NCBI GenBank assembly: GCA_949361645.1 | Contig: OX442417.1 | Location: forward strand, 7,486,275-7,550,274 | Length of the DNA stretch: 64,000 nt | From: Spongilla lacustris | Taxonomy: Eukaryota; Porifera; Demospongiae; Spongillida; Spongillidae | Direction: 5' to 3' | Part shown: in pieces, positions 4,791-58,260 of the stretch | Layout of the letters: every line of letters starts with the position of its first letter | Position numbering within the stretch: the stretch's first letter is position 1 | The notes under the pieces: generated by a model | The model's input: the letters and a program-made list of their open reading frames with translations, nothing else | Databases searched by the model: none | Told to the model about the DNA's origin: nothing | Program-made: the position numbers and the translations under genes

Positions 4791-4950
4791 CCGGTGTCGT
4801 AGTGTACAATGTCCCCCCTAAAATTTGTCCCCCCGGACGTTCTGCACTAGTGTACAATGTCCCCCCGGACATTCTGCACTAGTGTACAATGTCCCCCCGG
4901 ACAATCTACACTAGGGCAAACTGTCCCCCTCCAGGGTAAAATGTCCTCCC
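4791..4950 (+). repeat. Modular GTCC palindromic repeat, copy 3 (ACTAGT variant)
   Basis: It begins CCGGTGTCGTAGTGTACAAT and then alternates GTCCCCCCGGAC with the centre TGCACTAGTGTACA. It ends with GGGTAAAATGTCCTCC, like the GTAGGACATT end of other copies. Same architecture as copy 1 but with different words beside both palindromic centres. Confidence 0.7.
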
Positions 4951-9235: not shown

Positions 9236-9420
9236 GTAGGACATTGCGCCCTAGTGTGGAGTGTCCGGGGGGGGGGGGGGACATTTTACCCTGGGGGGGG
9301 GGGGGGGGGGGGGGGGGACAGTTAGCCCTAGTGCAGAGTGTCCGGGGGGACATTGTGCACTAGTGCAGAATGTCCGGGGGGACATTCCGCACGGGGGGAC
9401 AATCCACCCTCCCACACCGG
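9236..9420 (-). repeat. Modular GTCC palindromic repeat, copy 4
   Basis: Read on the minus strand it starts CCGGTGTGGGAGGGTGG and runs through GTCCCCCC / TGCACTAGTGCA modules to the GTAGGACATT end at 9236. It holds a G run of over 20 bases. Same family as 2120-2285. Confidence 0.65.
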
Positions 9421-21554: not shown

Positions 21555-22238
21555 ATGTCCTTCAATCTGCAGGTGAAAATGGCTTCAACAAGACGTCATC
21601 AGTGTGAACAATGTGTAAAGGCATTTTCACGATCGTCACATCTGCAAAGACATATGCTCACTCATACTGGAGAGAGGACACACAAGTGTGCACAATGTGG
21701 AAAGGCATTTTCGCTACAGCAAAATATGAAAACTCACATGCTCATTCATACTGGAGAGAAGCCACATCAGTGTGATCAGTGTGGAAAGGCATTTTCACAA
21801 CAGTCAACTGTGAAAATACACATGCTCACTCATACTGGAGAGAAGGCATATCAGTGTGAACAATGTGGAAATAAATTTTCACTACTGAAAAATCTGAAAA
21901 GGCACATGCTCATTCATACTGGAGAAAGGCCGCATCAGTGTGAACAGTGTGGAAAGGCATTTGCACAACAGTCAACTCTGAAAAGACACATGGTCACTCA
22001 TACTGGAGAAAGGCCACATCGGTGTGAAAAGTGTGGAAAGGCATTTTCGTTAAAGGATAATTTGAAAGCACACATGCACACTCATACTGGGAAGAAGAAT
22101 TACAAAAGATCAATTTCATTGAAGGCCCTCTGCAGGATTGATACTGGTGAAAGATTGAAGTGCAGCAACAGTGGATGTACCAAATCGTACCTGTATAAGA
22201 ACAGTTTGAATTTCCATCTTAAGACATGTCAAATGTAA
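21555..22238 (+). CDS. C2H2 zinc-finger protein, six to seven fingers
   Basis: A 227-residue intact frame encodes six canonical C2H2 fingers in tandem (C-x2-C-x3-F-x5-L-x2-H-x3-H), spaced by TGE[KR]x[HY]-type linkers: first HQCEQCVKAF, then HKCAQCGKAF, HQCDQCGKAF, YQCEQCGNKF, HQCEQCGKAF and HRCEKCGKAF. A linker without a finger (NYKRSISLKALCRI) precedes a C-terminal C2HC-like finger (LKCSNSGCTKSYL ... HLKTC). The start could be Met 21555 or, more likely, Met 21579 (MASTRRHQC), because CTGCAG just before it looks like a splice acceptor. Such proteins bind DNA in the nucleus; no KRAB, SCAN or BTB domain is encoded here, though an upstream exon could lie within the preceding sequence. It is the only fully intact gene I can support, about 220 bp from the right end of a decayed transposon. 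Confidence 0.9.
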   Translation: MSFNLQVKMASTRRHQCEQCVKAFSRSSHLQRHMLTHTGERTHKCAQCGKAFSLQQNMKTHMLIHTGEKPHQCDQCGKAFSQQSTVKIHMLTHTGEKAYQCEQCGNKFSLLKNLKRHMLIHTGERPHQCEQCGKAFAQQSTLKRHMVTHTGERPHRCEKCGKAFSLKDNLKAHMHTHTGKKNYKRSISLKALCRIDTGERLKCSNSGCTKSYLYKNSLNFHLKTCQM

Positions 22239-35018: not shown

Positions 35019-35426
35019 GCTGTAAGTTACTGCCGATGGATCCTTCTTGATGACATTCACAATTCGCTGTCCTTTCTCTCTAGAATTAGTCTTGCTCGTT
35101 TTATCATCCCTGTCCTTGAACTGTTCAACGCAAAATCTGTCAAAAAGCTGCTTCTGATCGCACTGGTCCATACTCGACTAAGGTGACTTTACACACATGC
35201 ACGTGCACAGTTTTGAAAGTGCGCATGCGTATTGAAGTTACGCGATTTCAAAATTGCGCAGTGCAATTTCGAAATTGGGTGGCAATTTTAAAATCGGAGG
35301 ACAGTTTCGAAATCGGTACCCAATTTCGAAATTTTCAAATCGCGCAACGCAATTTCGAAATTGCGCTAATTTACAATTTGTTCCAGTTTATAGATCATCC
35401 CCATGGACTACGGCTAAAAATGTGAC

Positions 35427-35880
35427 ACGTCATTATTTCAACACTATTAGTATTAAAACCATGCACAATCAATGGTGAATACTGATATTGCACAAAAAAA
35501 TTTTTTTTCTTTCGCTTTATAAATAAGCGCATATACTTAATTGACTGATTTGTATATGTAATTGAACCATCCACAAAAATATAGGTACACCACTAGCAGT
35601 AGAGACCTATTGCTGTTGGGGTGCTGAGACCAGGGACACACTATTTCTGTTAGGCCGATGGTTCGCAGCACGTCATTTTTTCAACACTGTGTATAGTATA
35701 AAAACCATGCACAATCAATGGTGAATACTGATATTGCACAAAAAAAAAAATTTCTTTCGCTTTATAAAAAAACGCATATACTTAATTGACTGATTTGTAT
35801 AACCATCCACAAAAATATAGGTACACCACTAGCAGTAGAGACCTATTGCTGTTGGGGTGCTGAGACCAGGGACACACTAT
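35427..35880. repeat. ~240-bp tandem duplication
   Basis: From CACGTCATT...TCAACACT through TAAAACCATGCACAATCAAT to GAGACCAGGGACACACTATC the sequence is repeated (about 35427-35641 and 35668-35880). Differences are a 9-bp deletion and A-run length changes. No ORF. Confidence 0.85.
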
Positions 35881-37151: not shown

Positions 37152-40100
37152 ATATACAGGGTGATCCAAAAGTCGCGCAAAATCTTTGAATTGGCATAAC
37201 TCCAGAACTGAACATGGTAAAATTATGCTGTTTAAACCAAAAATCATGCCAATCATTAGCTTAAGTTATGAATGTGTGGTTATTAAAAGTTAGTTATCGG
37301 TTTATTAAAAACATGCCAATGCTATGATCAACATTCAGTACCACCCAGGAAGTGTGTAAAAATTAATTTTTATAACTATTAAAATTACTTATCACGTGAT
37401 CTATCTTATATGTGGTTTTTGTGGGGAAACCCCTGCTGAAAGTCAAGCTATTGCAAATTAATCACCAATATCACGGTGAATCTATGCAAAGAAGCATCCA
37501 ATAATCGTGCCAATGAACAGCTTACCATCTTGCGTGGTGACTAACGAAGCCAAACGTTTAAAACGGAGTTGATTAGTTTCTGTTAATTGACATTATTAAA
37601 AGCTAACTTTGAATTATCAGACCTGTAGAGGAAGCCGTACTCTAATTGTGGAACTAACTTTTGTATTTTCTCCTCCACTGGAAACAAAGTTACAAACTGT
37701 CCAAGTTTGGCAGCGCTTACGCATGCGCGGAATTATTGAACGAAAGTGGAACATGAATGTTTAGGTCTGCGTACGAGAGGTCTCACGTGAACACAATTGA
37801 ATATTATCACATTCACGTGATACATTGCCGCTGTGCACAACACAGCCCCACCCTCCTAAACTATGCTTCTCTTCAACATCATTGCGCGCACTTTTCATTC
37901 GCCTGCGCAAATGTGACCCATCAGATGCATAGGCAAATATTGTAAAATCCAGTGTTATCAAAAATCCCCAAGCCGTGGCTAACGAGCCTATGCTTCACTG
38001 AGTTGTTCATTAAAAAAAAAAAAAAAGCAGAGAATCTTTATTGGACGCAAATCGTACCATACCGCGACGTTCGTTTCACAGCAGTTAGCTAGCTGTACTG
38101 GTTTTAATAACAAACCGTACTAGGTGTGCACCATTTCAATTCGAACGTCATTTCAAATAGGCCTACCTGCGCACAAAGGCGGGAGGTGAACTTAAGCAAC
38201 AAGGCAGCTTAGTACAGCGCTGCAGCTACACTAGTGCATGCAGCCGCGTGGTCCAGAACGTGCTTCATCAAAGACGCTAGAGTACGTACGTACACATGCA
38301 CGCGCATAGGTAAGTATGGGTTCAGAAATTATGTAGCGTATTCGTTCATGTTACAGACAGAATTCGTAGAAAGCAGGGTCGCTACGAGCAGGACACTTGT
38401 ACGAACCCAAAAACAACTGGAGCAGCTTGCTCTGCAATGTCCTACCACACTAACTAAGGTTCGTGTACGTGCGTGCCGGCCTCGACAGGCCTACCTGCTG
38501 TATACGTAGTCACTCTGCCTCCACCTGGACTGGAAGGTCGGGGTCTCTCCGTCTCACTTGGAGAAAAGGTCTCTCTACCCGACTGGACGAGAGGCGTCTC
38601 TCTACCTGACTGGAAAGCAGGGGTCTCTCTACCTGACTGGAAGGCCGGGGTCTCTCTACCTGACTTGAAAAGAGGGGTCTCTCTACCTGACTGGAAGGCA
38701 GGGGTCTCTCTACCTGACTGGAAAGAGAGGGGTCTCTCTACCTGACTGGAAAGAGAGGGGTCTCTCTACCTGACTGGAACCGAAGGATGATCTCTGCCTG
38801 ACACAGAGAGAGGGGGGTCTCTCTATTTGACAGAGAGAGAATACTTTTTTCTGTCTCACCCAGAGAGGGGTCTCTGTACCTGACAGGAAGAGAGGGGTCT
38901 CTCTACCTGACTGGATGTTAGGGGTCTCTCTATACCTGACTGGAACTGAAGGATGATCTCTGCCTGACACAGAGAGAGGGGTCTCTCTATCTGACAGAAA
39001 GAGATCTGTCTCAGTCAGAGAGGGTTCTGTCAATCTGTGTGGACAAGAAGGGTCTCTCTACCTGACTGGAAGAGAGGAGTCTCTCTACCTGACTGGAACT
39101 GAAGGATGATCTCTGCCTGAGGGGTCTCTTAATTTGACAGAAAGTAAATCCTTTTTCTGTCTCACTCAGAGAGGGGTCTCTCTACCTGACTGGCAGGAAA
39201 GGGTCTCTCTGTCTCACTCAGAGACGGGGGTCTCTCTACCTGACTGGAACTGAAAGGTGATCTCTGCCTGACACAGAGAGAGGGGTCTCTCTGTCTGATA
39301 GAAAGAGAATGATTGTTCTGTCTCACTCAGAGAGGGGTCTCTCTACCTGACTGGAAGGGATGGTTTCTCTGTCTCACTTGGAGATAAGAGTCACTCTACC
39401 TGACTTGAAGACACGGGTCTCTCTACCTGACTGGAAGAGAAGGGTCTCTCCGAGACAGGGGTCTCTGTACCTGACTAAAAAGGACAGGTCTCTCTACTGG
39501 ACTGGATAAGTAGGGTCTCTCTACCTGACCGGAAGAGAGGGGTCTCTGTACCTGACTGGAAGTATGGGGTCTCTCTACCTGACTGGAACTGAAGGATGAT
39601 CTCTGCCTGACACAGAGAGAGGGGTCTCTCTATCTGACAGAAAGAGAATGCTTTTTCTGACTCAGTCAGAGAGGGTTCTCTCTATCTGTCAGAAAGAGAA
39701 TGCTCTTTCTTTCTCACTCAGATATGGTTCTGCCTATCTGTCTGGAAGAGAAGGGTCTCTCTACCTGACTGGAAGAGAGGAGTCTCTCTACCTGACTGGA
39801 ACTGAAGGATGATCTCTGCCTGACACACAGAGATGGGTCTCTCTATTTGACAGAGAGAATGCTTTTTCTGTCTCACTCAGTGAGGGGTCTCTCTACCTGA
39901 CTGGAAGAGAGGTGTCTCTGTACCTGAGTCTCTCTACCTGACTGGAACTGAAGGATGATCTCTGCCTGAGGGTTCTCTCTATTTGACAGAAAGAAAATGC
40001 TTTATCTGTCTCACTCAGAGAGGGGTCTCTCTACCTGACTGGAAGAGAAAGGTCTCTCTGTCTCACTCAGAGACGGGGGGTCTCGCTTCTTGACTGGAAC

Positions 40101-42420
40101 TGAAATGTGATCTCTGCCTGACACAGAGAGAGGGGTCTCTCTATCGGACAGAAAAAAAATGATCTTTCTGTCGCACTCAGAGAGGGGTCTCGCTACCTGA
40201 CTGATAGAGAGAGATCTCTCTACCTGACTGGAAAAGAGGGGTTTCTCTACCTGACTGGAGGAGAGGGGTCTCTGTACCTGACTAGAAGAGTGGGGTCTCT
40301 CTACCTGACTGGATCTCTGCCTGAGAGGTCTCTTAATTTGACAGAAAGAAAATGCTTTTTCTGTCTCACTCAGAGAGGAGTCTCTCTACCTGACTGGAAG
40401 GGAGGGGTTTCTCCATTTCACTTGGAGAGGAAGGTCTCTTTACCTGACTGGAAGAGAATGGTCTCTCTGTCTCACTCAGATACGGGGGTCTGTCTTCCTG
40501 AGTGGAACTGAAAGGTGATCTCTGCCTGACACAGAGAGAGAGGTCTCTCTGTCTGACAGAAAGAGAGTGATCTTTCTGTCTCACTCAGAGAGGGGTTTCT
40601 CTACCTGACTAGAAGAGATGGTCTCTCCGTCTCACTTGGAGATAAGAGTTACTCTACCTCACTGGAAGACAGTGGTCTCTCTACCTTACTGGAAGAGAAA
40701 GGTCTCTCAGACAGGGGTCTCTGTACCTGACTGGAAGAGAGGGATCTCTCTACCTGGCTGGAAGAGAGGAGTCTCTCCACCTGACTGGAACTGAAGGATA
40801 ATCTCTGCCTGAGGGTTCTTTTAATTTGACAGAAAGAAAATGCTTTTTCTGTCTCACTCAGAGAGGGGTCTCTCTACTTGACTGGAAGGGAAGGGTCTCT
40901 CCATATCACTAGGAGAGGAAGGTCTCTTTACCTGACTGGACGTAAATGGTCTCTGTCTCACTCAGAGACGGTGGTCTCTCTATCTGACTGGAACTGAAAG
41001 GTGATCTCTACCTGACTGGAACTGAAAGGTGATCTCTGTCTGACACAGAGAGAGGGGTCTCTGTCTGACAGAAAGAAAATGCTTTTTCTGTCTCACTCAG
41101 AGAGCGGTCTCTCTACCTGACTGGAAGTGAGGGATCTCTCTGTGTGACTCACACAGAGGAGTCTATCTGCTGCCCTGATACAGACAGGTCGGTCTCTCTA
41201 CCCGACTGGAAGGGACGGTCTCTCCGTCTCACTTGGAGATAAGAGTCACTCTACCTGACAGGAAGAGATGGGTCTCACAGACAGGAGTCTCTGTACCTGA
41301 CTGGAAAAGAAGGGTCTCTCTACTTGACTGGAAGAGCAGGGTCTCTCTAACTGACCGGAAGAGAGGGGTCTCTGTACCTGACTGGATGAGTGGGGTCTCT
41401 CTACCTGACTGGAACTGAAGGATGATCTCTGCCTGACACAGAGAGAGGGGTCTCTCTATTTGACAGAAAGAGAATGTATTTTCTGTCTCACTCTTAGAGG
41501 GGTCTCTGTACCTGACAGGAAGAGAGGGGTCTCTCTACATGACTGGAAGAAAGGGGTCTCTTTACCTGACTGGAAGAGAGGGATCTCTCTACCTGGCTGG
41601 AAGAGAGGAGTCTCTCTACCTGACTGGAACTGAAGGATAATCTCTGCCTGAGGGGTCTCTTAATTTGACAGAAAGAAGATGCTTTTTCTGTCTCACTCAG
41701 AGAGGGGTCTCTCTACCTGACTGGAAGGGAGGGGTCTCTCCATATCACTTGGAGAGGAAGGTCTCTTTACCTGACTGGAAGTGAATGTTCTCTCTGTCTC
41801 ACTCAGAGACGGTGGTCTCTCTACCTGACTGGAACTGAAAGGTGATCTCTACCTGACTGGAACTGAAAGGTGATCTCTGTCTGACACAGAGAGAGGGGTC
41901 TCTCTGTCTGACAGAAAGAAAATGCTTTTTCTGTCTCACTAAGAGAGCGGTCTCTCTACCTGACTGGAAGTGAGGGATCTCTCTGTGTCACTCACACAGA
42001 GGAGTCTATCTGCTGCCCTGATACAGACAGGTCGGTCTCTCTACCGGACTGGAAGGGATGGTCTCTCCGTCTCACTTGGAGATAAGAGTCACTCTACCGC
42101 ACTGGAAGAGATGCCCTTCCCCACCGAGCCAACGTAGGAACAGGAGTCACACACGGCGTGTCTCCACCCGCCAAAGTAGACCATGCGGAAGGAAGGAACG
42201 TAGATGCGTATGACGGCGCTCACAGACAGGGGTCTCTGTACCTGACTGGAAGAGAGGGGTCTCTGTACCTGACTGGAAGAGTGGGGTCTCTCTACCTGAC
42301 TGGAACTGAAGGATGATCTCTGCCTGACACAGAGAGAGGGGTCTCTCTATTTGATAGAAAAAGAATGCTTTTTCTGTCTCACTCAGAGAGGGGTCTCTCT
42401 ATCTGATAGAAAGAGAATGC
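37152..42420 (+). repeat. Left arm of the foldback element
   Basis: Matches the reverse complement of about 46735-51868. 37152-38519 is non-repetitive and starts with the TACAGGGTGATCC end; the rest is array. Differences from the right arm seen by eye are rare (two in a 42-bp sample near 37280). Confidence 0.85.
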
Positions 42421-43890
42421 TCTTTCTTTCTTACTCAGATAGGGTTCTGTCTATCTGTCTGGAACAGAAGGGTCTCTCTACCTGACTGGAAGAGAGGAGT
42501 CTCTCTACCTGACTGGAACTGAAGGATGATCTCTGCCTGACACACAGAGAGGAGTCTCTCTATTTGACAGAAAGAGAATGCTTTTTCTGTCTCACTCAGA
42601 GAGGGTTCTGTCTATCTGTCTGGAAGAGAAGGGTCTCTCTACCTGACTGGAAGAGAGGAGTCTCTCTACCTGGCTGGAAGAGAGGTGTCTCTGTACCTGA
42701 CTGGAAGAGAGGAGTCTCTCCTCCTGACTGGAACTGAAGGATGACCTCTGCCTGAGGGATCTCTCTATCTGACAGAAAGAAAATGCTTTTTCTGTCTCAC
42801 TCAGAGAGGGGCGTCTCTACCTGACTGGAAGGGTGGGCTCTCCCCATTTCACTTGGAGTGGAAGGTCTCTCTACCTGACTGGAAGAAAGTGGTCTCTCTG
42901 TCTCACTCAGAGACGGGGGTCTTGGTCTCTCTATCTGACAGAAAGAGAATGATCTTTCTGTCTCACTCAGAGAGGGGTCTCTCTACCTGACTGGAATAGA
43001 GGGGTCTTTCTACCTGACTGGAAGAGAGGGGTCTCTCTATCTGACTGGAAGAGAAGGGTCTCTCTACCTGACTAAAAGAGAGGGGTCTCTCAACCTGACG
43101 GAAAGCGAGGGGTCTCTCTACCTGACAGAAAGAGAGAGGTCTCTCTACCTGACTGGAAGAGAGGGGTCTCTCTACCTGACTGGAATAGAAGGGTCTCTTT
43201 AACTGACTGGAAGAGAAGGCCGAAGGGTCTCTGTGTCTAACTCAGATACAGGGGTCTTTGTACCTGTCTGAAAAAAACTTAACTGGAATAGAGAGGTCTC
43301 TCTACAGGACTGGAAGAGAGGGATCTCTCTATAGACACAAAGACCCTTCTCGTCCAGTAAGGTAGAGAGACCCCTCTCTTCCAATGAAATAGAGAGACCC
43401 CTCTCTTCCAGTCAGGTAGAGAGACCCCTCTTTTCAAGTCAGGTCGACAGACCCCTGTATTCAAGTCAGGTATACCTGACTGGAATAGAGAGGTCTGTCG
43501 ACCTGACTTGAAAAGAGGGGTCTCTCTACCTGACTGGAAGAGAGGGGTCTCTCTACCTGACTGGAACTGAAAGATGATCTCTGCCTGACACGCAGAGAGT
43601 GGTCTCTCTATTTGACAGAAAGTGAATGCTTTTTCTGTCTCACTCAGAGAGGGGTCTCTATACCTAACAGGAAGAGAGGGATCTCTCTACCGGACTGGAA
43701 GATAGGGGTCTCGTAATATTACTGGAAGAGAGGGGTCTCTGTACCTGACTGGAAGAGAGGGGTCTCTCCACCTGACTTGAAAAGAGGTGTCTCTATCTGA
43801 CTGGAAGAGAGGGCTCTCTCTACCTGACTGGAAGAGAGCGGTCTCTCTACCTGACTGGAAGAGAGAGGTCTGTCGACCTGACTTGAAATG
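38520..43890 (+). repeat. Left minisatellite array, ~27-bp unit with higher-order structure
   Basis: The basic unit is GGTCTCTCTACCTGACTGG followed by AAGAGAGG. Variant blocks with AACTGAAGGATGATCTCTGC, CTGACACAGAGAGAGG, GACAGAAAGAGAATGC and CTGTCTCACTCAGAGA alternate with it and form larger repeated blocks of about 130 bp or more. The single-copy interlude CACCGAGCCAACGTAGGAAC (about 42110-42225) interrupts it. Unit length is a multiple of three and lacks stops in some frames, so long chance frames appear. Confidence 0.9.
43335..43605. repeat. Small palindrome inside the left array
   Basis: About 43335-43470 is in the reverse orientation to the surrounding array and mirrors 43471-43605 across the centre CAGGTA|TACCTG (shared words CTTTTCAAGTCAGGTCGACA and their complements). 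It is a local inverted duplication nested in the larger palindrome. Confidence 0.8.
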
Positions 43891-44944
43891 AGAAGGATAT
43901 AATTTTTTTATATCTGCAGATGTATTTGTGTCAGTGTATTAATGTAAGTATCTGTGTTCTGTGAGCATGTAATTGTGATAAAGTTTCAGTTTATTTGTTT
44001 ATGTATTTGTTTGTGAAAATAGTGTAGTTTAAAGTATCTGTCATTTACACACACTTATGTGTGTTCTAAATTAGTACTATGCAAGCTTAACTTTGTGCAT
44101 AGGAGCATAAGAAGACTCAGATCTACATTTGGTTTCTTACCAATAAAGCCCTGCAGGTGTCATAATCAATGCAAATTATTCATAGAGGTCATGGAGAGGT
44201 GTTTCAAGCCCCTCCTACTGTCTACTACTAGACATCAAAGGGATACCCACTTGCTTACTTTCACTTCCTCTCTTTTGACTCACAATACCCCTATGCACAC
44301 ACTTTCCCAGGAGGAGGAAGGAATAAGGCTCATACCTACCACACACATGCATACCCACCTCCACAGACATGATTAAACCCCCCCACAATGCATGTAACAA
44401 CTATTTTTATGCTTAAATATTCTCACTTCTGCCCCCCTCTCCACTGTACCTATCAATGCCACCCTTTCTAGATCTTTATTTCCCTGCCCGGCCTCCCATC
44501 TCGAAGGCAGAGAGGTTTATCTGTCTAACAGTTAAACGAGGTCCCTCTGAGTGTTAGCACAGAGAGTGGTACTGCTAGAACCCAATACATGTAGCTCCTT
44601 CGGTACACAATTTCACAGCAGGAGATGTTCCTATACCATGTACATGTACATGTATAACAAAAACACTTCATCTGGCAGTTTCTAAAGATTGATGTGTTAA
44701 TTTAATACTCTACATACACAAAACACAGTTAGAGTCATGTGACCCTGACTAAACTCCACCATGTACTATGGTTGGTGGCAGAGGAAAGTTTTAGTGTCTC
44801 CAGTCCCTTCTTCCTCCATCACTGGAGGAGAAGCATGGTCCTAGTGTGGTATAGACAACATACGATCATACTTCTCTACCAGGTTCTCCACGTTGGGCTG
44901 CAGGTACGCAATTATAACACCACTGTCTCCTGAAGAGGGAGTAG
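43891..44944. other. Unique spacer at the centre of the foldback element
   Basis: About 1 kb of AT-richer, non-repetitive DNA with TACATGTA words and short frames (up to 105 codons at 44059-44376) without recognisable domains. A decayed array-like piece (AGAGAGGTTTATCTGTCTAAC) lies near 44509. Confidence 0.7.
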
Positions 44945-47900
44945 GAGACTCTTCTCATCCAGTCAGGTAGAGAGACCCCTCTCTTCCAGTCCGGTAGAAG
45001 CACCCCTCCCTTCCAGTCAGGTAGAGAGACCTGTCTCTTCCAGTCAGGTAGAGAGACCTCTCTCTTCCAGTCAGGTAGAGAGACCCCTCTCTTCCAGTCA
45101 GGTAGAGAGACCCCTCTCTTCCAGTCAGGTAGTGAGACACGTCTCTCCCAGTTAAGTAGAGAGACCCCTCTCTTCCAGTCAGGTACAGAGACCCCTGTCT
45201 CCGAGTAAGACAGATAGACCATTCTCTTCCAGTCAGGTACAGAGACCCCCATCTCTGAGTGAGACGGAGAAACCAATCTCTTCCAGTCAGGTAGAGAGAC
45301 ATTACTCTCCAAGTGAAATGGAGAGACCCCTCCTTTCCAGTCAAGTAGAGAGACCCCTCTCTTCCAATCATGTGTAGAGACCGACCTCTCTGTACCAGAG
45401 CAGCAGATAGACTCCTCTGTCTGAGTGACACAGACAGACCCCTCTCTTCCAGTCAGGTACAGAGACTCCTCCCTTTCAATCAGGTAGAGAGACTCTTCTT
45501 TTCCGGTCATGAAGAAAGACCCCTCTCTGAGTGAACAGAAAAAGCATTTTCTTTCTGTCAAATAGAGAGACCCCTCAGGCAGAGATCATCGTTCAGTTCT
45601 GGTCAGGTAGAGAGACCCCACACTTCCAGTCAGTTAGACAGACCCCTCTCTTCCAGTCAGGTAGAGAGACCCCTCTTTTCAAGTCTGGTAGAGAGACCCA
45701 ACTCTTCCAGTAAGGTAGAGAGACCCCTCTTTTCCAGTCACACCTCTTTTCAAGTCAGGTAGAAAGAGCCAACTCTTCCAGTCAGGTAGAGAGACTCCTC
45801 TCTGAGTGAGAAAGAAAGAGCATTTTCTTTCTGTCAATTAGAGAGACCCCTCTCTCAGTGTCAGGCAGAGATCATCCTTCAGTTCCAGTCAGGTACAGAG
45901 ACCACTCTCTTCCAGTCAGGTAGAGAGACCCTTCTCTTCCAGGCAGATAGACAGACACGTCTCTGAGCGAGACAGACAGAGCATTCTCATTTATGTCAGA
46001 TAGAGAGACCCCTCTCTCTGTGTCAGGCAGAGATAATCCTTCAGTTAAAGTCAGGTAGAGAAAACCCACACTTCCAGTCAGGTACAGAGACCTCTCTCTT
46101 CCGGTCAGGGAGAGAGACCATTCTCTTCCAGTCAAATAGAGACACCCCTCTTTTCCAGTCAGTTACAGAGACCCCTGTCTCTGAGTGAAACAGAGAGACC
46201 ATTCTAGTCCAGTCAGGTAGAGAGACCTTCCTCTCCAAGTGAAATGGAGAGACCCCTCTCTTCCAGTCAAATAGAGACCCCTCTCGTCCAGTCATACGTA
46301 GAGACCGACCTCTCTGTACCGGAGCAACAGATAGACTCCTCTGTCAGAGTGACACAGAAAGACCCCTCTCTTCCAGTCAGGTACAGAGACTCCTCCCTTT
46401 CAATCAGGTAGAGAGACTCCTCTTTTCCAGTCATGAAGAGAGACCCCTCTCTGAGTGAGACAGAAAAAGCATTTTCATTCTGTCAAATGGAAAGACCCCT
46501 CACTCTGTGTATGGCAGAGATCATCGTTCAGTTCCAGTCAGGTAGAGAGACCCCTCAGTTAGATCGACCCCACTCTTCCAGTCAGGTAGAGAGACCCCTC
46601 TTTTCAAGTCAGGTAGAGATACCCAACTCGTCCAGGTAGGTAGAGAGACCCTCTCTTCCAGTCAGGTAGAAAGACCCCTCTTTTCAAGTAAGGTAGAGAG
46701 AGACCCCTCTCGTCCAGTTAGGTAGAGAGACCCTTCTCTTCCTAACAAATAAACAGAACCCTCTCTCAGTGTGACAGAAGGAGCATTCTCTTTTATGTCA
46801 CATAGAGAGACCCCTCTCTCTGTGTCAGGCAGAGATCATCCTTCAGTTCCAGTCAGGTAGAGAGACCCCACTCTTCCAGTCAGGTACAGAGACCCCTCTC
46901 TTCCAGTCAGGTACAGAGACCCCTGTCTGTGAGCGCCGTCATACGCATCTACGTTCCTTCCTTCCGCATGGTCTACTTTGGCGGGTGGAGACACGCCGTG
47001 TGTGACTCCTGTTCCTACGTTGGCTCGGTGGGGAAGGGCATCTCTTCCAGTGCGGTAGAGTGACTCTTATCTCCAAGTGAGATGGAGAGACCATCCCTTC
47101 CAGTCCGGTAGAGAGACCGACCTGTCTGTATCAGGGCAGCAGATAGACTCCTCTGGGTGAGTGACACAGAGAGATCCCTCACTTCCAGTCAGGTAGAGAG
47201 ACTGCTCTCTGAGTGAGACAGAAAAAGCATTTTCTTTCTGTCAGACAGAGAGACCCCTCTCTCTGTGTCAGACAGAGATCACCTTTCAGTTCCAGTCAGG
47301 TAGAGATCACCTTTCAGTTCCAGTCAGGTAGAGAGACCACCGTCTCTGAGTGAGACAGAGAGAACATTCACTTCCAGTCAGGTAAAGAGACCTTCCTCTC
47401 CAAGTGATATGGAGAGACCCCTCCCTTCCAGTCAGGTAGAGAGACCCCTCTCTGAGTGAGACAGAAAAAGCATCTTCTTTCTGTCAAATTAAGAGACCCC
47501 TCAGGCAGAGATTATCCTTCAGTTCCAGTCAGGTAGAGAGACTCCTCTCTTCCAGCCAGGTAGAGAGATCCCTCTCTTCCAGTCAGGTAAAGAGACCCCT
47601 TTCTTCCAGTCATGTAGAGAGACCCCTCTCTTCCTGTCAGGTACAGAGACCCCTCTAAGAGTGAGACAGAAAATACATTCTCTTTCTGTCAAATAGAGAG
47701 ACCCCTCTCTCTGTGTCAGGCAGAGATCATCCTTCAGTTCCAGTCAGGTAGAGAGACCCCACTCATCCAGTCAGGTACAGAGACCCCTCTCTTCCGGTCA
47801 GTTAGAGAGACCCTGCTCTTCCAGTCAAGTAGAGAGACCCTTCTTTTCCAGTCAGGTACAGAGACTCCTGTCTGTGAGACCCATCTCTTCCTGTCAGGTA

Positions 47901-50500
47901 GAGTGACTCTTATCTCCAAGTGAGACGGAGAGACCGTCCCTTCCAGTCGGGTAGAGAGACCGACCTGTCTGTATCAGGGCAGCAGATAGACTCCTCTGTG
48001 TGAGTCACACAGAGAGATCCCTCACTTCCAGTCAGGTAGAGAGACCGCTCTCTGAGTGAGACAGAAAAAGCATTTTCTTTCTGTCAGACAGAGACCCCTC
48101 TCTCTGTGTCAGACAGAGATCACCTTTCAGTTCCAGTCAGGTAGAGATCACCTTTCAGTTCCAGTCAGATAGAGAGACCACCGTCTCTGAGTGAGACAGA
48201 GACCATTTACGTCCAGTCAGGTAAAGAGACCTTCCTCTCCTAGTGATATGGAGAGACCCTTCCCTTCCAGTCAGGTAGAGAGACCCCTCTCTGAGTGAGA
48301 CAGAAAAAGCATTTTCTTTCTGTCAAATTAAAAGAACCCTCAGGCAGAGATTATCCTTCAGTTCCAGTCAGGTGGAGAGACTCCTCTCTTCCAGCCAGGT
48401 AGAGAGATCCCTCTCTTCCAGTCAGGTACAGAGACCCCTGTCTGAGAGACCCTTCTCTTCCAGTAAGGTAGAGAGACCACTGTCTTCCAGTGAGGTAGAG
48501 TAACTCTTATCTCCAAGTGAGACGGAGAGACCATCTCTTCTAGTCAGGTAGAGAAACCCCTCTCTGAGTGAGACAGAAAGATCACTCTCTTTCTGTCAGA
48601 CAGAGAGACCTCTCTCTCTGTGTCAGGCAGAGATCACCTTTCAGTTCCACTCAGGAAGACAGACCCCCTTATCTGAGTGAGACAGAGAGACCATTCTCTT
48701 CCAGTCAGGTAAAGAGACCTTCCTCTCCAAGTGAAATGGAGAAACCCCTCCCTTCCAGTCAGGTAGAGAGACTCCTCTCTGAGTGAGACAGAAAAAGCAT
48801 TTTCTTTCTGTCAAATTAAGAGACCTCTCAGGCAGAGATCCAGTCAGGTAGAGAGACCCTACTCTTCTAGTCAGGTACAGAGACCCCTCTCCTCCAGTCA
48901 GGTCGAGAAACCCCTCTTTTCCAGTCAAGTAGAGAGATCTCTCTCTATCAGTCAGGTAGCGAGACCCCTCTCTGAGTGCGACAGAAAGATCATTCTTTTT
49001 CTGTCCGATAGAGAGACCCCTCTCTCTGTGTCAGGCAGAGATCACCTTTCAGTTCCAGTCAAGAAGCGAGACCCCCCGTCTCTGAGTGAGACAGAGAGAC
49101 CTTTCTCTTCCAGTCAGGTAGAGAGACCCCTCTCTGAGTGAGACAGATAAAGCATTTTCTTTCTGTCAAATAGAGAGAACCCTCAGGCAGAGATCATCCT
49201 TCAGTTCCAGTCAGGTAGAGAGACTCAGGTACAGAGACACCTCTCTTCCAGTCAGGTAGAGAGACCCTTCTCTTCCAGACAGATAGGCAGAACCATATCT
49301 GAGTGAGAAAGAAAGAGCATTCTCTTTCTGACAGATAGAGAGAACCCTCTCTGACTGAGTCAGAAAAAGCATTCTCTTTCTGTCAGATAGAGAGACCCCT
49401 CTCTCTGTGTCAGGCAGAGATCATCCTTCAGTTCCAGTCAGGTAGAGAGACCCCATACTTCCAGTCAGGTACAGAGACCCCTCTCTTCCGGTCAGGTAGA
49501 GAGACCCTACTTATCCAGTCCAGTAGAGAGACCTGTCCTTTTTAGTCAGGTACAGAGACCCCTGTCTCGGAGAGACCCTTCTCTTCCAGTCAGGTAGAGA
49601 GACCCGTGTCTTCAAGTCAGGTAGAGTGACTCTTATCTCCAAGTGAGACAGAGAAACCATCCCTTCCAGTCAGGTAGAGAGACCCCTCTCTGAGTGAGAC
49701 AGAACAATCATTCTCTTTCTATCAGACAGAGAGACCCCTCTCTCTGTGTCAGGCAGAGATCACCTTTCAGTTCCAGTCAGGTAGAGAGACCCCCGTCTCT
49801 GAGTGAGACAGAGAGACCCTTTCCTGCCAGTCAGGTAGAGAGACCCCTCTCTGAGTGAGACAGAAAAAGGATTTACTTTCTGTCAAATTAAGAGACCCCT
49901 CAGGCAGAGATCATCCTTCAGTTCCAGTCAGGTAGAGAGACTCCTCTCTTCCAGTCAGGTAGAGAGACCCTTCTTGTCCACACAGATTGACAGAACCCTC
50001 TCTGACTGAGACAGATCTCTTTCTGTCAGATAGAGAGACCCCACTCTCTGTGTCAGGCAGAGATCATCCTTCAGTTCCAGTCAGGTATAGAGAGACCCCT
50101 AACATCCAGTCAGGTAGAGAGACCCCTCTCTTCCTGTCAGGTACAGAGACCCCTCTCTGGGTGAGACAGAAAAAAGTATTCTCTCTCTGTCAAATAGAGA
50201 GACCCCCCTCTCTCTGTGTCAGGCAGAGATCATCCTTCGGTTCCAGTCAGGTAGAGAGACCCCTCTCTTTCCAGTCAGGTAGAGAGACCCCTCTCTTTCC
50301 AGTCAGGTAGAGAGACCCCTGCCTTCCAGTCAGGTAGAGAGACCCCTCTTTTCAAGTCAGGTAGAGAGACCCCGGCCTTCCAGTCAGGTAGAGAGACCCC
50401 TGCTTTCCAGTCAGGTAGAGAGACGCCTCTCGTCCAGTCGGGTAGAGAGACCTTTTCTCCAAGTGAGACGGAGAGACCCCGACCTTCCAGTCCAGGTGGA
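44945..50500 (-). repeat. Right minisatellite array, inverted
   Basis: Same units as the left array on the opposite strand (CCAGTCAGGTAGAGAGACC). The inner part, 44945 to about 46735, does not pair register-for-register with the left array, whereas the outer part does. The frames 44866-45561 (repeating GVSLPDWKR) and 44955-45431 (repeating SLYLTGREG) on the minus strand are two readings of the same repeat. Confidence 0.9.
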
Positions 50501-51868
50501 GGCAGAGTGACTACGTATACAGCAGGTAGGCCTGTCGAGGCCGGCACGCACGTACACGAACCTTAGTTAGTGTGGTAGGACATTGCAGAGCAAGCTGCTC
50601 CAGTTGTTTTTGGGTTCGTACAAGTGTCCTGCTCGTAGCGACCCTGCTTTCTACGAATTCTGTCTGTAACATGAACGAATACGCTACATAATTTCTGAAC
50701 CCATACTTACCTATGCGCGTGCATGTGTACGTACGTACTCTAGCGTCTTTGATGAAGCACGTTCTGGACCACGCGGCTGCATGCACTAGTGTAGCTGCAG
50801 CGCTGTACTAAGCTGCCTTGTTGCTTAAGTTCACCTCCCGCCTTTGTGCGCAGGTAGGCCTATTTGAAATGACGTTCGAATTGAAATGGTGCACACCTAG
50901 TACGGTTTGTTATTAAAACCAGTACAGCTAGCTAACTGCTGTGAAACGAACGTCGCGGTATGGTACGATTTGCGTCCAATAAAGATTCTCTGCTTTTTTT
51001 TTTTTTTTAATGAACAACTCAGTGAAGCATAGGCTCGTTAGCCACGGCTTGGGGATTTTTGATAACACTGGATTTTACAATATTTGCCTATGCATCTGAT
51101 GGGTCACATTTGCGCAGGCGAATGAAAAGTGCGCGCAATGATGTTGAAGAGAAGCATAGTTTAGGAGGGTGGGGCTGTGTTGTGCACAGCGGCAATGTAT
51201 CACGTGAATGTGATAATATTCAATTGTGTTCACGTGAGACCTCTCGTACGCAGACCTAAACATTCATGTTCCACTTTCGTTCAATAATTCCGCGCATGCG
51301 TAAGCGCTGCCAAACTTGGACAGTTTGTAACTTTGTTTCCAGTGGAGGAGAAAATACAAAAGTTAGTTCCACAATTAGAGTACGGCTTCCTCTACAGGTC
51401 TGATAATTCAAAGTTAGCTTTTAACAATGTCAATTAACAGAAACTAATCAACTCCGTTTTAAACGTTTGGCTTCGTTAGTCACCACGCAAGATGGTAAGC
51501 TGTTCATTGGCACGATTATTGGATGCTTCTTTGCATAGATTCACCGTGATATTGGTGATTAATTTGCAATAGCTTGACTTTCAGCAGGGGTTTCCCCACA
51601 AAAACCACATATAAGATAGATCACGTGATAAGTAATTTTAATAGTTATAAAAATTAATTTTTACACACTTCCTGGGTGGTACTGAATGTTGATCATAGCA
51701 TTGGCATGTTTTTAATAAACCGATAACTAAATTTTAATAACTACACATTCATAACTTAAGCTAATGATTGGCATGATTTTTGGTTTAAACAGCATAATTT
51801 TACCATGTTCAGTTCTGGAGTTATGCCAATTCAAAGATTTTGCGCGACTTTTGGATCACCCTGTATAT
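46735..51868 (-). repeat. Right arm of the foldback element
   Basis: Reverse-complement partner of 37152-42420. It includes the single-copy interlude at about 46935-47040 and ends GGATCACCCTGTA at 51867. Confidence 0.85.
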
Positions 51869-56457: not shown

Positions 56458-56614
56458 CCGTTGTCGGAGGCATGGCTGTCCCCCTGGAAAAAGTGTCCCC
56501 CCGGACATTCATGCCTAGGCACGACTGTCCCCCCGGACACTGGTGCCTAGGAATGAATGTCCCCTCTAGGCATTATTGTCCCCCCATGCCGGACATTTTT
56601 TCCTAGGCACAGCT

Positions 56615-58030: not shown

Positions 58031-58260
58031 GTGTAGGACATTCTATCCTAGGCACCAGTGTCCCCCCATGGGGGGACACTGGTGCCTAGGGTAGGACAAT
58101 TATGCCTAGGCATAAATGTCCCCTGCGGACATATATGCCTAGGCATAATTGTCCGGGGGACAATGGTGCCTAGGAACGAGTGTCCGGGGGACAGCGGTGC
58201 CTAGGCATGAATGTCCGGGGGGACATTTTGCGGGGGGGACAACCATGCCTACGACACCGG
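58031..58260 (-). repeat. Modular GTCC/CCTAGG palindromic repeat, copy 7
   Basis: On the minus strand it starts CCGGTGTCGTAGGCATGG and alternates GTCCCCCC with TGCCTAGGCATA, ending at GTAGGACATT (58033). This is one of the cleanest copies, with at least four CCTAGG centres. Confidence 0.8.

What the first reader, a model, noticed from the sequence alone, without database searches (positions are those of the whole stretch)
37152..51868. 14.7-kb foldback element: near-identical 5-kb arms made mainly of a 27-bp minisatellite
Both palindrome boundaries fall exactly on the same TACAGGGTGATCC motif next to TA/TATA, with unrelated DNA outside. That is what a transposed unit gives. Arms of this size built from tandem repeats recall Drosophila FB elements, but this one encodes no transposase and its ends fit no family I can name. 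It could be an undescribed foldback family or a decayed giant MITE.
Basis: partly seen in the sequence, partly recalled or inferred. Interest (0 to 1): 0.85.

Follow-up and report, generated by a model that had tools for sequence, protein, structure and literature searches.

The report
Giant foldback transposon with satellite arms
This 14.7-kb palindrome is one copy of a young family of giant jumping elements, apparently without genes of their own, that insert at TA sites and whose long mirror-image arms are filled with tandem repeats; it resembles a much larger relative of the foldback elements known from flies.

Summary
Each side has a 1.35-kb flanking domain and about 5.4 kb of degenerate 27-bp repeat, around a 1-kb loop.

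Ends chosen by inner sequence alone carry the exact TA-flanked end in 34 of 37 cases, and a paralogous empty site has a single TA.

There are at least two subfamilies. A (the window) has the 27-bp repeat. B shares the flanking domain at about 73-79% but has an unrelated ~175-bp repeat in its arms. The loops compared share little beyond a 97-bp block. No hit of two Tc1/pogo transposase families, among those listed, lies in any of 53 mapped copies.

Best reading: a non-autonomous foldback family with Tc1/mariner-like insertion, mobilised in trans, whose two arms are often kept alike by copying between them. Tetris of Drosophila virilis has the same architecture but 8-10-bp duplications and shorter arms. 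The transposase is unidentified and the host only probably a sponge.

The parts
37157..51863 (.). whole element, subfamily A, 14,707 bp
   Evidence: ends and TA flanks; copies elsewhere
37155..37156 (.). TA target-site duplication, left
   Evidence: single TA in a paralogous empty site of copy L019; 34 of 37 inner-selected B ends have the exact TA-flanked end
51864..51865 (.). TA target-site duplication, right
37157..37192 (+). terminal 36 bp, the part shared (89%) even with an otherwise unrelated element (L062)
51828..51863 (-). terminal 36 bp, right end
   Evidence: mirror of the left end
37157..38520 (+). left flanking domain, about 1.35 kb, non-repetitive; about 73-79% to subfamily B over 1.0-1.3 kb; inner boundary approximate
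50500..51863 (-). right flanking domain, mirror copy; inner boundary approximate
38568..43892 (+). left tandem array, degenerate 27-bp unit; reversed island at 43341-43472
44941..50501 (-). right tandem array, same unit in opposite orientation
43893..44940 (.). central non-repetitive loop, about 1 kb; found in at least 37 places at 90-100% (one of them in two pieces)
44152..44246 (.). 97-column block of the loop, 88/97 identical (first 43 identical) to the loop of one B element, surrounded by mostly unalignable sequence
   Evidence: overlapping short hits at C6 and C7

Best explanation
A non-autonomous foldback DNA transposon family that inserts at TA, preferably inside ATATAT, as Tc1/mariner-type transposases do. 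A transposase encoded elsewhere in the genome is inferred to bind the short common terminus (36-97 bp is shared even between otherwise unrelated elements), cut the 14-17-kb unit out and paste it into TA. The flanking domain is kept between subfamilies while the tandem repeat filling the arms is replaced (27-bp unit in A, ~175-bp unit in B). The two arms of a copy are often kept alike by copying from one arm to the other. Shown: ends, TA duplication, empty site, copy number, two subfamilies with different arm repeats, closeness of arms within many copies. Inferred: the transposase class, mobilisation in trans, the arm-to-arm copying mechanism (gene conversion or repair templated by the sister arm), present-day activity.
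For: 164 copies of the 24-bp end (85 + 79, control 0). Flanks of all 11 assembled copies differ and all carry TA on both sides (chosen from a search whose query included target bases, so not bias-free). Bias-free: 34 of 37 B ends picked by an inner 34-mer have the exact TA-flanked end, and 22 of 28 loop-picked A copies have both exact ends, 6 have one. Joined flanks of copy L019 align through the junction to a paralogous repeat in L039 with a single TA (86% over 366 bp). Among 19 ends whose selection fixed only TA, the base before it is A in 11, the next T in 14, the next A in 12. No ORF over 240 aa, and those seen read through the repeat, in 11 assembled copies. Two flanking-domain subfamilies; B arms tandem at about 170-180 bp in the three B elements sampled (L048, L061, L067). 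Arm copying: 0-5 differences between the two flanking domains in 11 of 15 copies, smaller than to the nearest other copy in 10 of 15, tied in 1; nearest array is the own partner for 13 of 22 arms; L061 carries a private long C-run at the same site in both arms (34 and 32 letters), against 5 letters in 8 distinct other B ends. The genome holds many open-frame transposases with DDE_3 and DDE_1 domains (79 and 157 matches).
Against: No transposase has been tied to these ends. A related-end search gave 8 places (control 1) and was not followed to a coding element. PF01359 (mariner) gave 0 matches but its control was silent too. Arm copying is not universal: in 4 of 15 copies the arms differ more from each other than from another copy, and in 6 of 11 copies the array shares more with some other copy than with its own partner. 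A unit of 15 kb is very large for Tc1/mariner (recalled). The TA alone does not prove the superfamily.
Confidence: 0.7

Rival explanations
1. An autonomous family of an undescribed TA-inserting superfamily: one of the larger copies (20-26 kb) carries its own transposase, and the 13-17-kb copies are its defective derivatives.
For: Copies up to 25.9 kb exist. The flanking domain is long and conserved between subfamilies. No known transposase could be linked. The interiors of the 20-26-kb copies were not read.
Against: None of the 79 listed DDE_3 hits and none of the 150 listed (of 157) DDE_1 hits lies in 53 distinct mapped copies, 865,591 bases (first looks capped, so lower bounds). The centre and one arm stretch of one B element are non-coding.
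Confidence: 0.15
2. A member of the FB / Mutator-like or P-like (Galileo) foldback elements.
For: Flanking domain, tandem-repeat domain and non-coding middle match Tetris and FB in order (PMC4079207, sections 10 and 17 read).
Against: Those elements duplicate 8-10 bp; here the duplication is TA and the adjoining bases differ on the two sides.
Confidence: 0.03
3. A local inverted duplication or an assembly artefact, not a mobile unit.
For: Long palindromes are hard to assemble, and no reads could be examined.
Against: About 80 dispersed copies with the same end, unrelated flanks with TA and an empty site.
Confidence: 0.02
4. Arms are alike simply because each copy is young and came from a master with already identical arms; no continuing arm-to-arm copying.
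For: Many copies are near-identical to each other as well; 4 of 15 copies have arms less alike than to another copy.
Against: Copies differing from every other by 23 (L033) keep arms differing by 2; L061 has a private C-run in both arms.
Confidence: 0.25

Closest known systems
Tetris (Drosophila virilis), PMC4079207: abstract and sections 10 and 17 read
   Same: Long inverted arms made of an outer flanking domain and an inner tandem-repeat domain, variable non-coding middle, no ORF, no known autonomous partner; shares only its outer part with another element (DAIBAM), as A does with L062 and L064.
   Different: Tetris: arms up to 1,735 bp, 220-bp repeat, 8-10-bp duplications, three complete copies. 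Here: about 6.7 kb per side, 27-bp or ~175-bp repeats, TA duplication, roughly 80 copies, mostly 13-17 kb and up to 26 kb.
Drosophila FB and sea urchin TU foldback elements (named in PMC4079207; details recalled)
   Same: Inverted arms built from short tandem repeats.
   Different: Larger duplications (recalled), smaller size.
Tc6 of Caenorhabditis elegans, a foldback element with TA duplication (recalled; the search gave listings only)
   Same: Foldback with TA duplication.
   Different: Under 2 kb, no satellite-filled arms (recalled).
MITEs of the Tc1/mariner superfamily
   Same: Non-coding, TA duplication, presumed mobilisation in trans.
   Different: MITEs are short; these are 13-26 kb with kb-scale tandem arrays.

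Membership tests
Foldback element (structural class) | very long inverted repeats, largely of tandem repeats, around a middle | tested here: met
   for 11 copies of subfamily A; B sampled in part only
Foldback element (structural class) | transposed unit with target-site duplication and dispersed copies | tested here: met
FB / Mutator-like / Galileo lineages | 8-10-bp (FB-type) or other long target-site duplication | tested here: not met
   TA only
IS630/Tc1/mariner superfamily | TA target-site duplication | tested here: met
IS630/Tc1/mariner superfamily | DDE/D transposase of the superfamily, encoded by the element or by a partner with the same ends | tested here: inconclusive
   none of the listed hits lies in 53 mapped copies; candidates exist elsewhere but their ends were not read; PF01359 control silent
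IS630/Tc1/mariner superfamily | cut-and-paste excision leaving a footprint | not testable with these tools
   one assembly, no individuals or reads
MITE | short (usually under about 1 kb) non-coding element | tested here: not met
   5.0-25.9 kb

The most novel reading that the evidence does not exclude
The satellite-filled arms are working parts, not ballast: the element keeps a conserved flanking domain, a conserved loop block and some tandem array in each arm, but exchanges the array sequence freely, because what matters is that the two arms can pair. Pairing would bring the distant ends together, letting a TA transposase move 15-kb units, and would let each arm be rewritten from the other after every move. 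Such a self-templating foldback would be a distinct way for a transposon to become very large and stay uniform.
Probability: 0.15. Interest if true: 0.75.

Novelty: new variant of a known kind. Interest (0 to 1): 0.5.

Why it matters
It shows that the foldback architecture (flanking domain, tandem array, middle) also exists at several times the known arm length on a TA-inserting element, so the architecture is not tied to the lineages with 8-10-bp duplications. Two subfamilies that share the outer domain but carry unrelated arrays make it possible to test whether tandem arms are selected as a structure or accumulate passively. About 80 mirror-image copies also offer many sites for inversions and other rearrangements (inference) and a source of new satellites, as Tetris was.

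Tried and rejected
Searched for a transposase by family (PF13358, PF03184, PF01359) and by variant ends: nothing tied to the element. The 5.0-kb B copy (L061) was read as a candidate autonomous unit; its 1.66-kb core matches an older repeat that also lies elsewhere at 78-81%, so I take it as foreign sequence. A BEN-domain impression from its reading frames was not confirmed by any search and is dropped. Coding by the 27-bp repeat (9 codons) was considered: open frames follow from the unit length and break often. Rfam gave no match in the window at gathering thresholds. The window's own joined flanks gave no contiguous empty site: only the two flanks themselves and short repeat matches away from the junction. 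Literature: (genome size) gave no host; searches gave no description of this family in the open-licence PMC library; of these only PMC4079207 (abstract, sections 10 and 17) and passages of PMC9659126 were read, the rest seen as listings.

Corrections on checking: the statement that every examined end abuts TA was dropped, because most ends had been chosen by patterns or a query containing TA; one search replaces it. The interval count (54) contained one copy twice; it is 53.

Full report
What is there. The palindrome is real and far beyond chance: arms of 2,644 and 2,483 nt pair at 99-100%, with 4 mismatches before collinearity breaks near 2,624. The unit runs from CAGGGTGATCC at 37157 to GGATCACCCTG at 51863 and is flanked by TA on both sides. 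Each side is a 1.35-kb non-repetitive flanking domain followed by about 5.4 kb of degenerate 27-bp repeat in opposite orientation; between them lies a loop of about 1 kb.

It is a mobile family. The window is part of a 248,560,934-base assembly. The terminal 24-mer occurs 85 + 79 times with up to 2 mismatches, against 0 for the reversed control; a 19-mer version occurs 127 + 112 times against 14 + 7. I assembled 11 copies including the window's: 13,417 to 17,508 bp, TA on both sides, different flanks. These were chosen from a search whose query contained target bases, so their TA is not bias-free. Two bias-free counts were made on contigs C1-C7, where the exact-end list is complete: of 37 B ends picked by an inner 34-mer, 34 have the exact TA-flanked end at the expected place; of 28 A copies picked by the loop, 22 have exact ends on both sides and 6 on one. 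Joined flanks of copy L019 align without a break to a repeat in L039 that lacks the insertion and has one TA (316 of 366 identical). The window's own joined flanks gave no such site. In 19 ends whose selection fixed only TA, the preceding bases lean to ATAT (A 12, T 14, A 11 of 19 at -5, -4, -3).

Two subfamilies. A, like the window, has the 27-bp repeat; its loop was found in at least 37 places at 90-100% (capped). B shares the flanking domain at about 73-79% and carries a ~175-bp tandem repeat, seen in three B elements (L048, L061, L067). I found 65 ends with the B pattern (a few are intermediates), 25 of them pairs of 5.0-25.0 kb; one further copy pairs an A-type list entry with a B end at 25.9 kb. 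The centre of one B element is non-coding and shares with the A loop a 97-column block (88 identical, the first 43 without change) plus two weaker collinear stretches. Other elements share only 97 bp (L064) or about 36 bp (L062) of the terminus with A, which points to the terminus as the transposase's site (inference).

No transposase in the copies. The 11 assembled copies have no open frame above 240 aa, and the longest read through the repeat. None of 79 listed DDE_3 hits and 150 listed of 157 DDE_1 hits lies in 53 distinct mapped copies. Both lists come from capped first looks. The mariner model PF01359 was silent in genome and controls alike, so it says nothing.

Arms. The two flanking domains of one copy differ by 0-5 in 11 of 15 copies. 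Within-copy difference is smaller than to the nearest other copy in 10, equal in 1 and larger in 4 (L019, L027, L031, L041). In the arrays, the nearest arm is the own partner for 13 of 22 arms; by copy, 5 of 11 are closer within than to any other and 6 are not. The B copy L061 carries a private C-run at the same place in both arms (34 and 32 letters), where 8 distinct other B ends have 5 letters. I read this as frequent but not universal copying between arms.

Comparison. Tetris of Drosophila virilis has the same order of parts (flanking domain, tandem domain, middle) and likewise no ORF or known partner, but its arms reach 1,735 bp and its duplications are 8-10 bp. The present family shares the design and differs in target size, scale, copy number and in having two unrelated array types. 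It is therefore filed as a foldback element with Tc1/mariner-like insertion, not as a member of FB, Mutator or P lineages; superfamily membership stays open until a transposase is tied to the ends.

Host. One window ORF has its best named relatives in Ephydatia muelleri (60-70% identity), with unnamed hits above them and a few other animals below; a sponge is likely but not shown.

Noticed in passing
44152-44246: Loop block kept 91% between subfamilies A and B (first 43 bp identical, including ATGCAAAT) while the surrounding loop barely aligns; function unknown.
   Followed up: partly
L061 266-299 and 4721-4752: Long private C-run (G-run on the mirror arm) at the same place in both arms of a 5.0-kb B copy.
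   Followed up: yes
4826-4929, 9312-9386, 56494-56564, 58094-58221: Several short arrays of a ~32-bp palindrome-rich unit (TGTCC...GGACA type), some beside poly-C or poly-G runs.
   Followed up: no
L066 1678-2000: A B element carries, next to its loop, an inverted and diverged (about 80%) piece of its own flanking domain, suggesting internal rearrangement.
   Followed up: no
35426-35880: Tandem duplication of a 236-bp unit, about 90% alike.
   Followed up: no
21555-22238: Open frame of 227 aa that reads as a multi-C2H2 zinc-finger protein (by eye, no family search).
   Followed up: no
G000: Several sets of transposase hits with the same score and the same open-frame length (for example 552 aa at 11 places, 567 aa at 5), suggesting recently active DDE_1 elements.
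   Followed up: no
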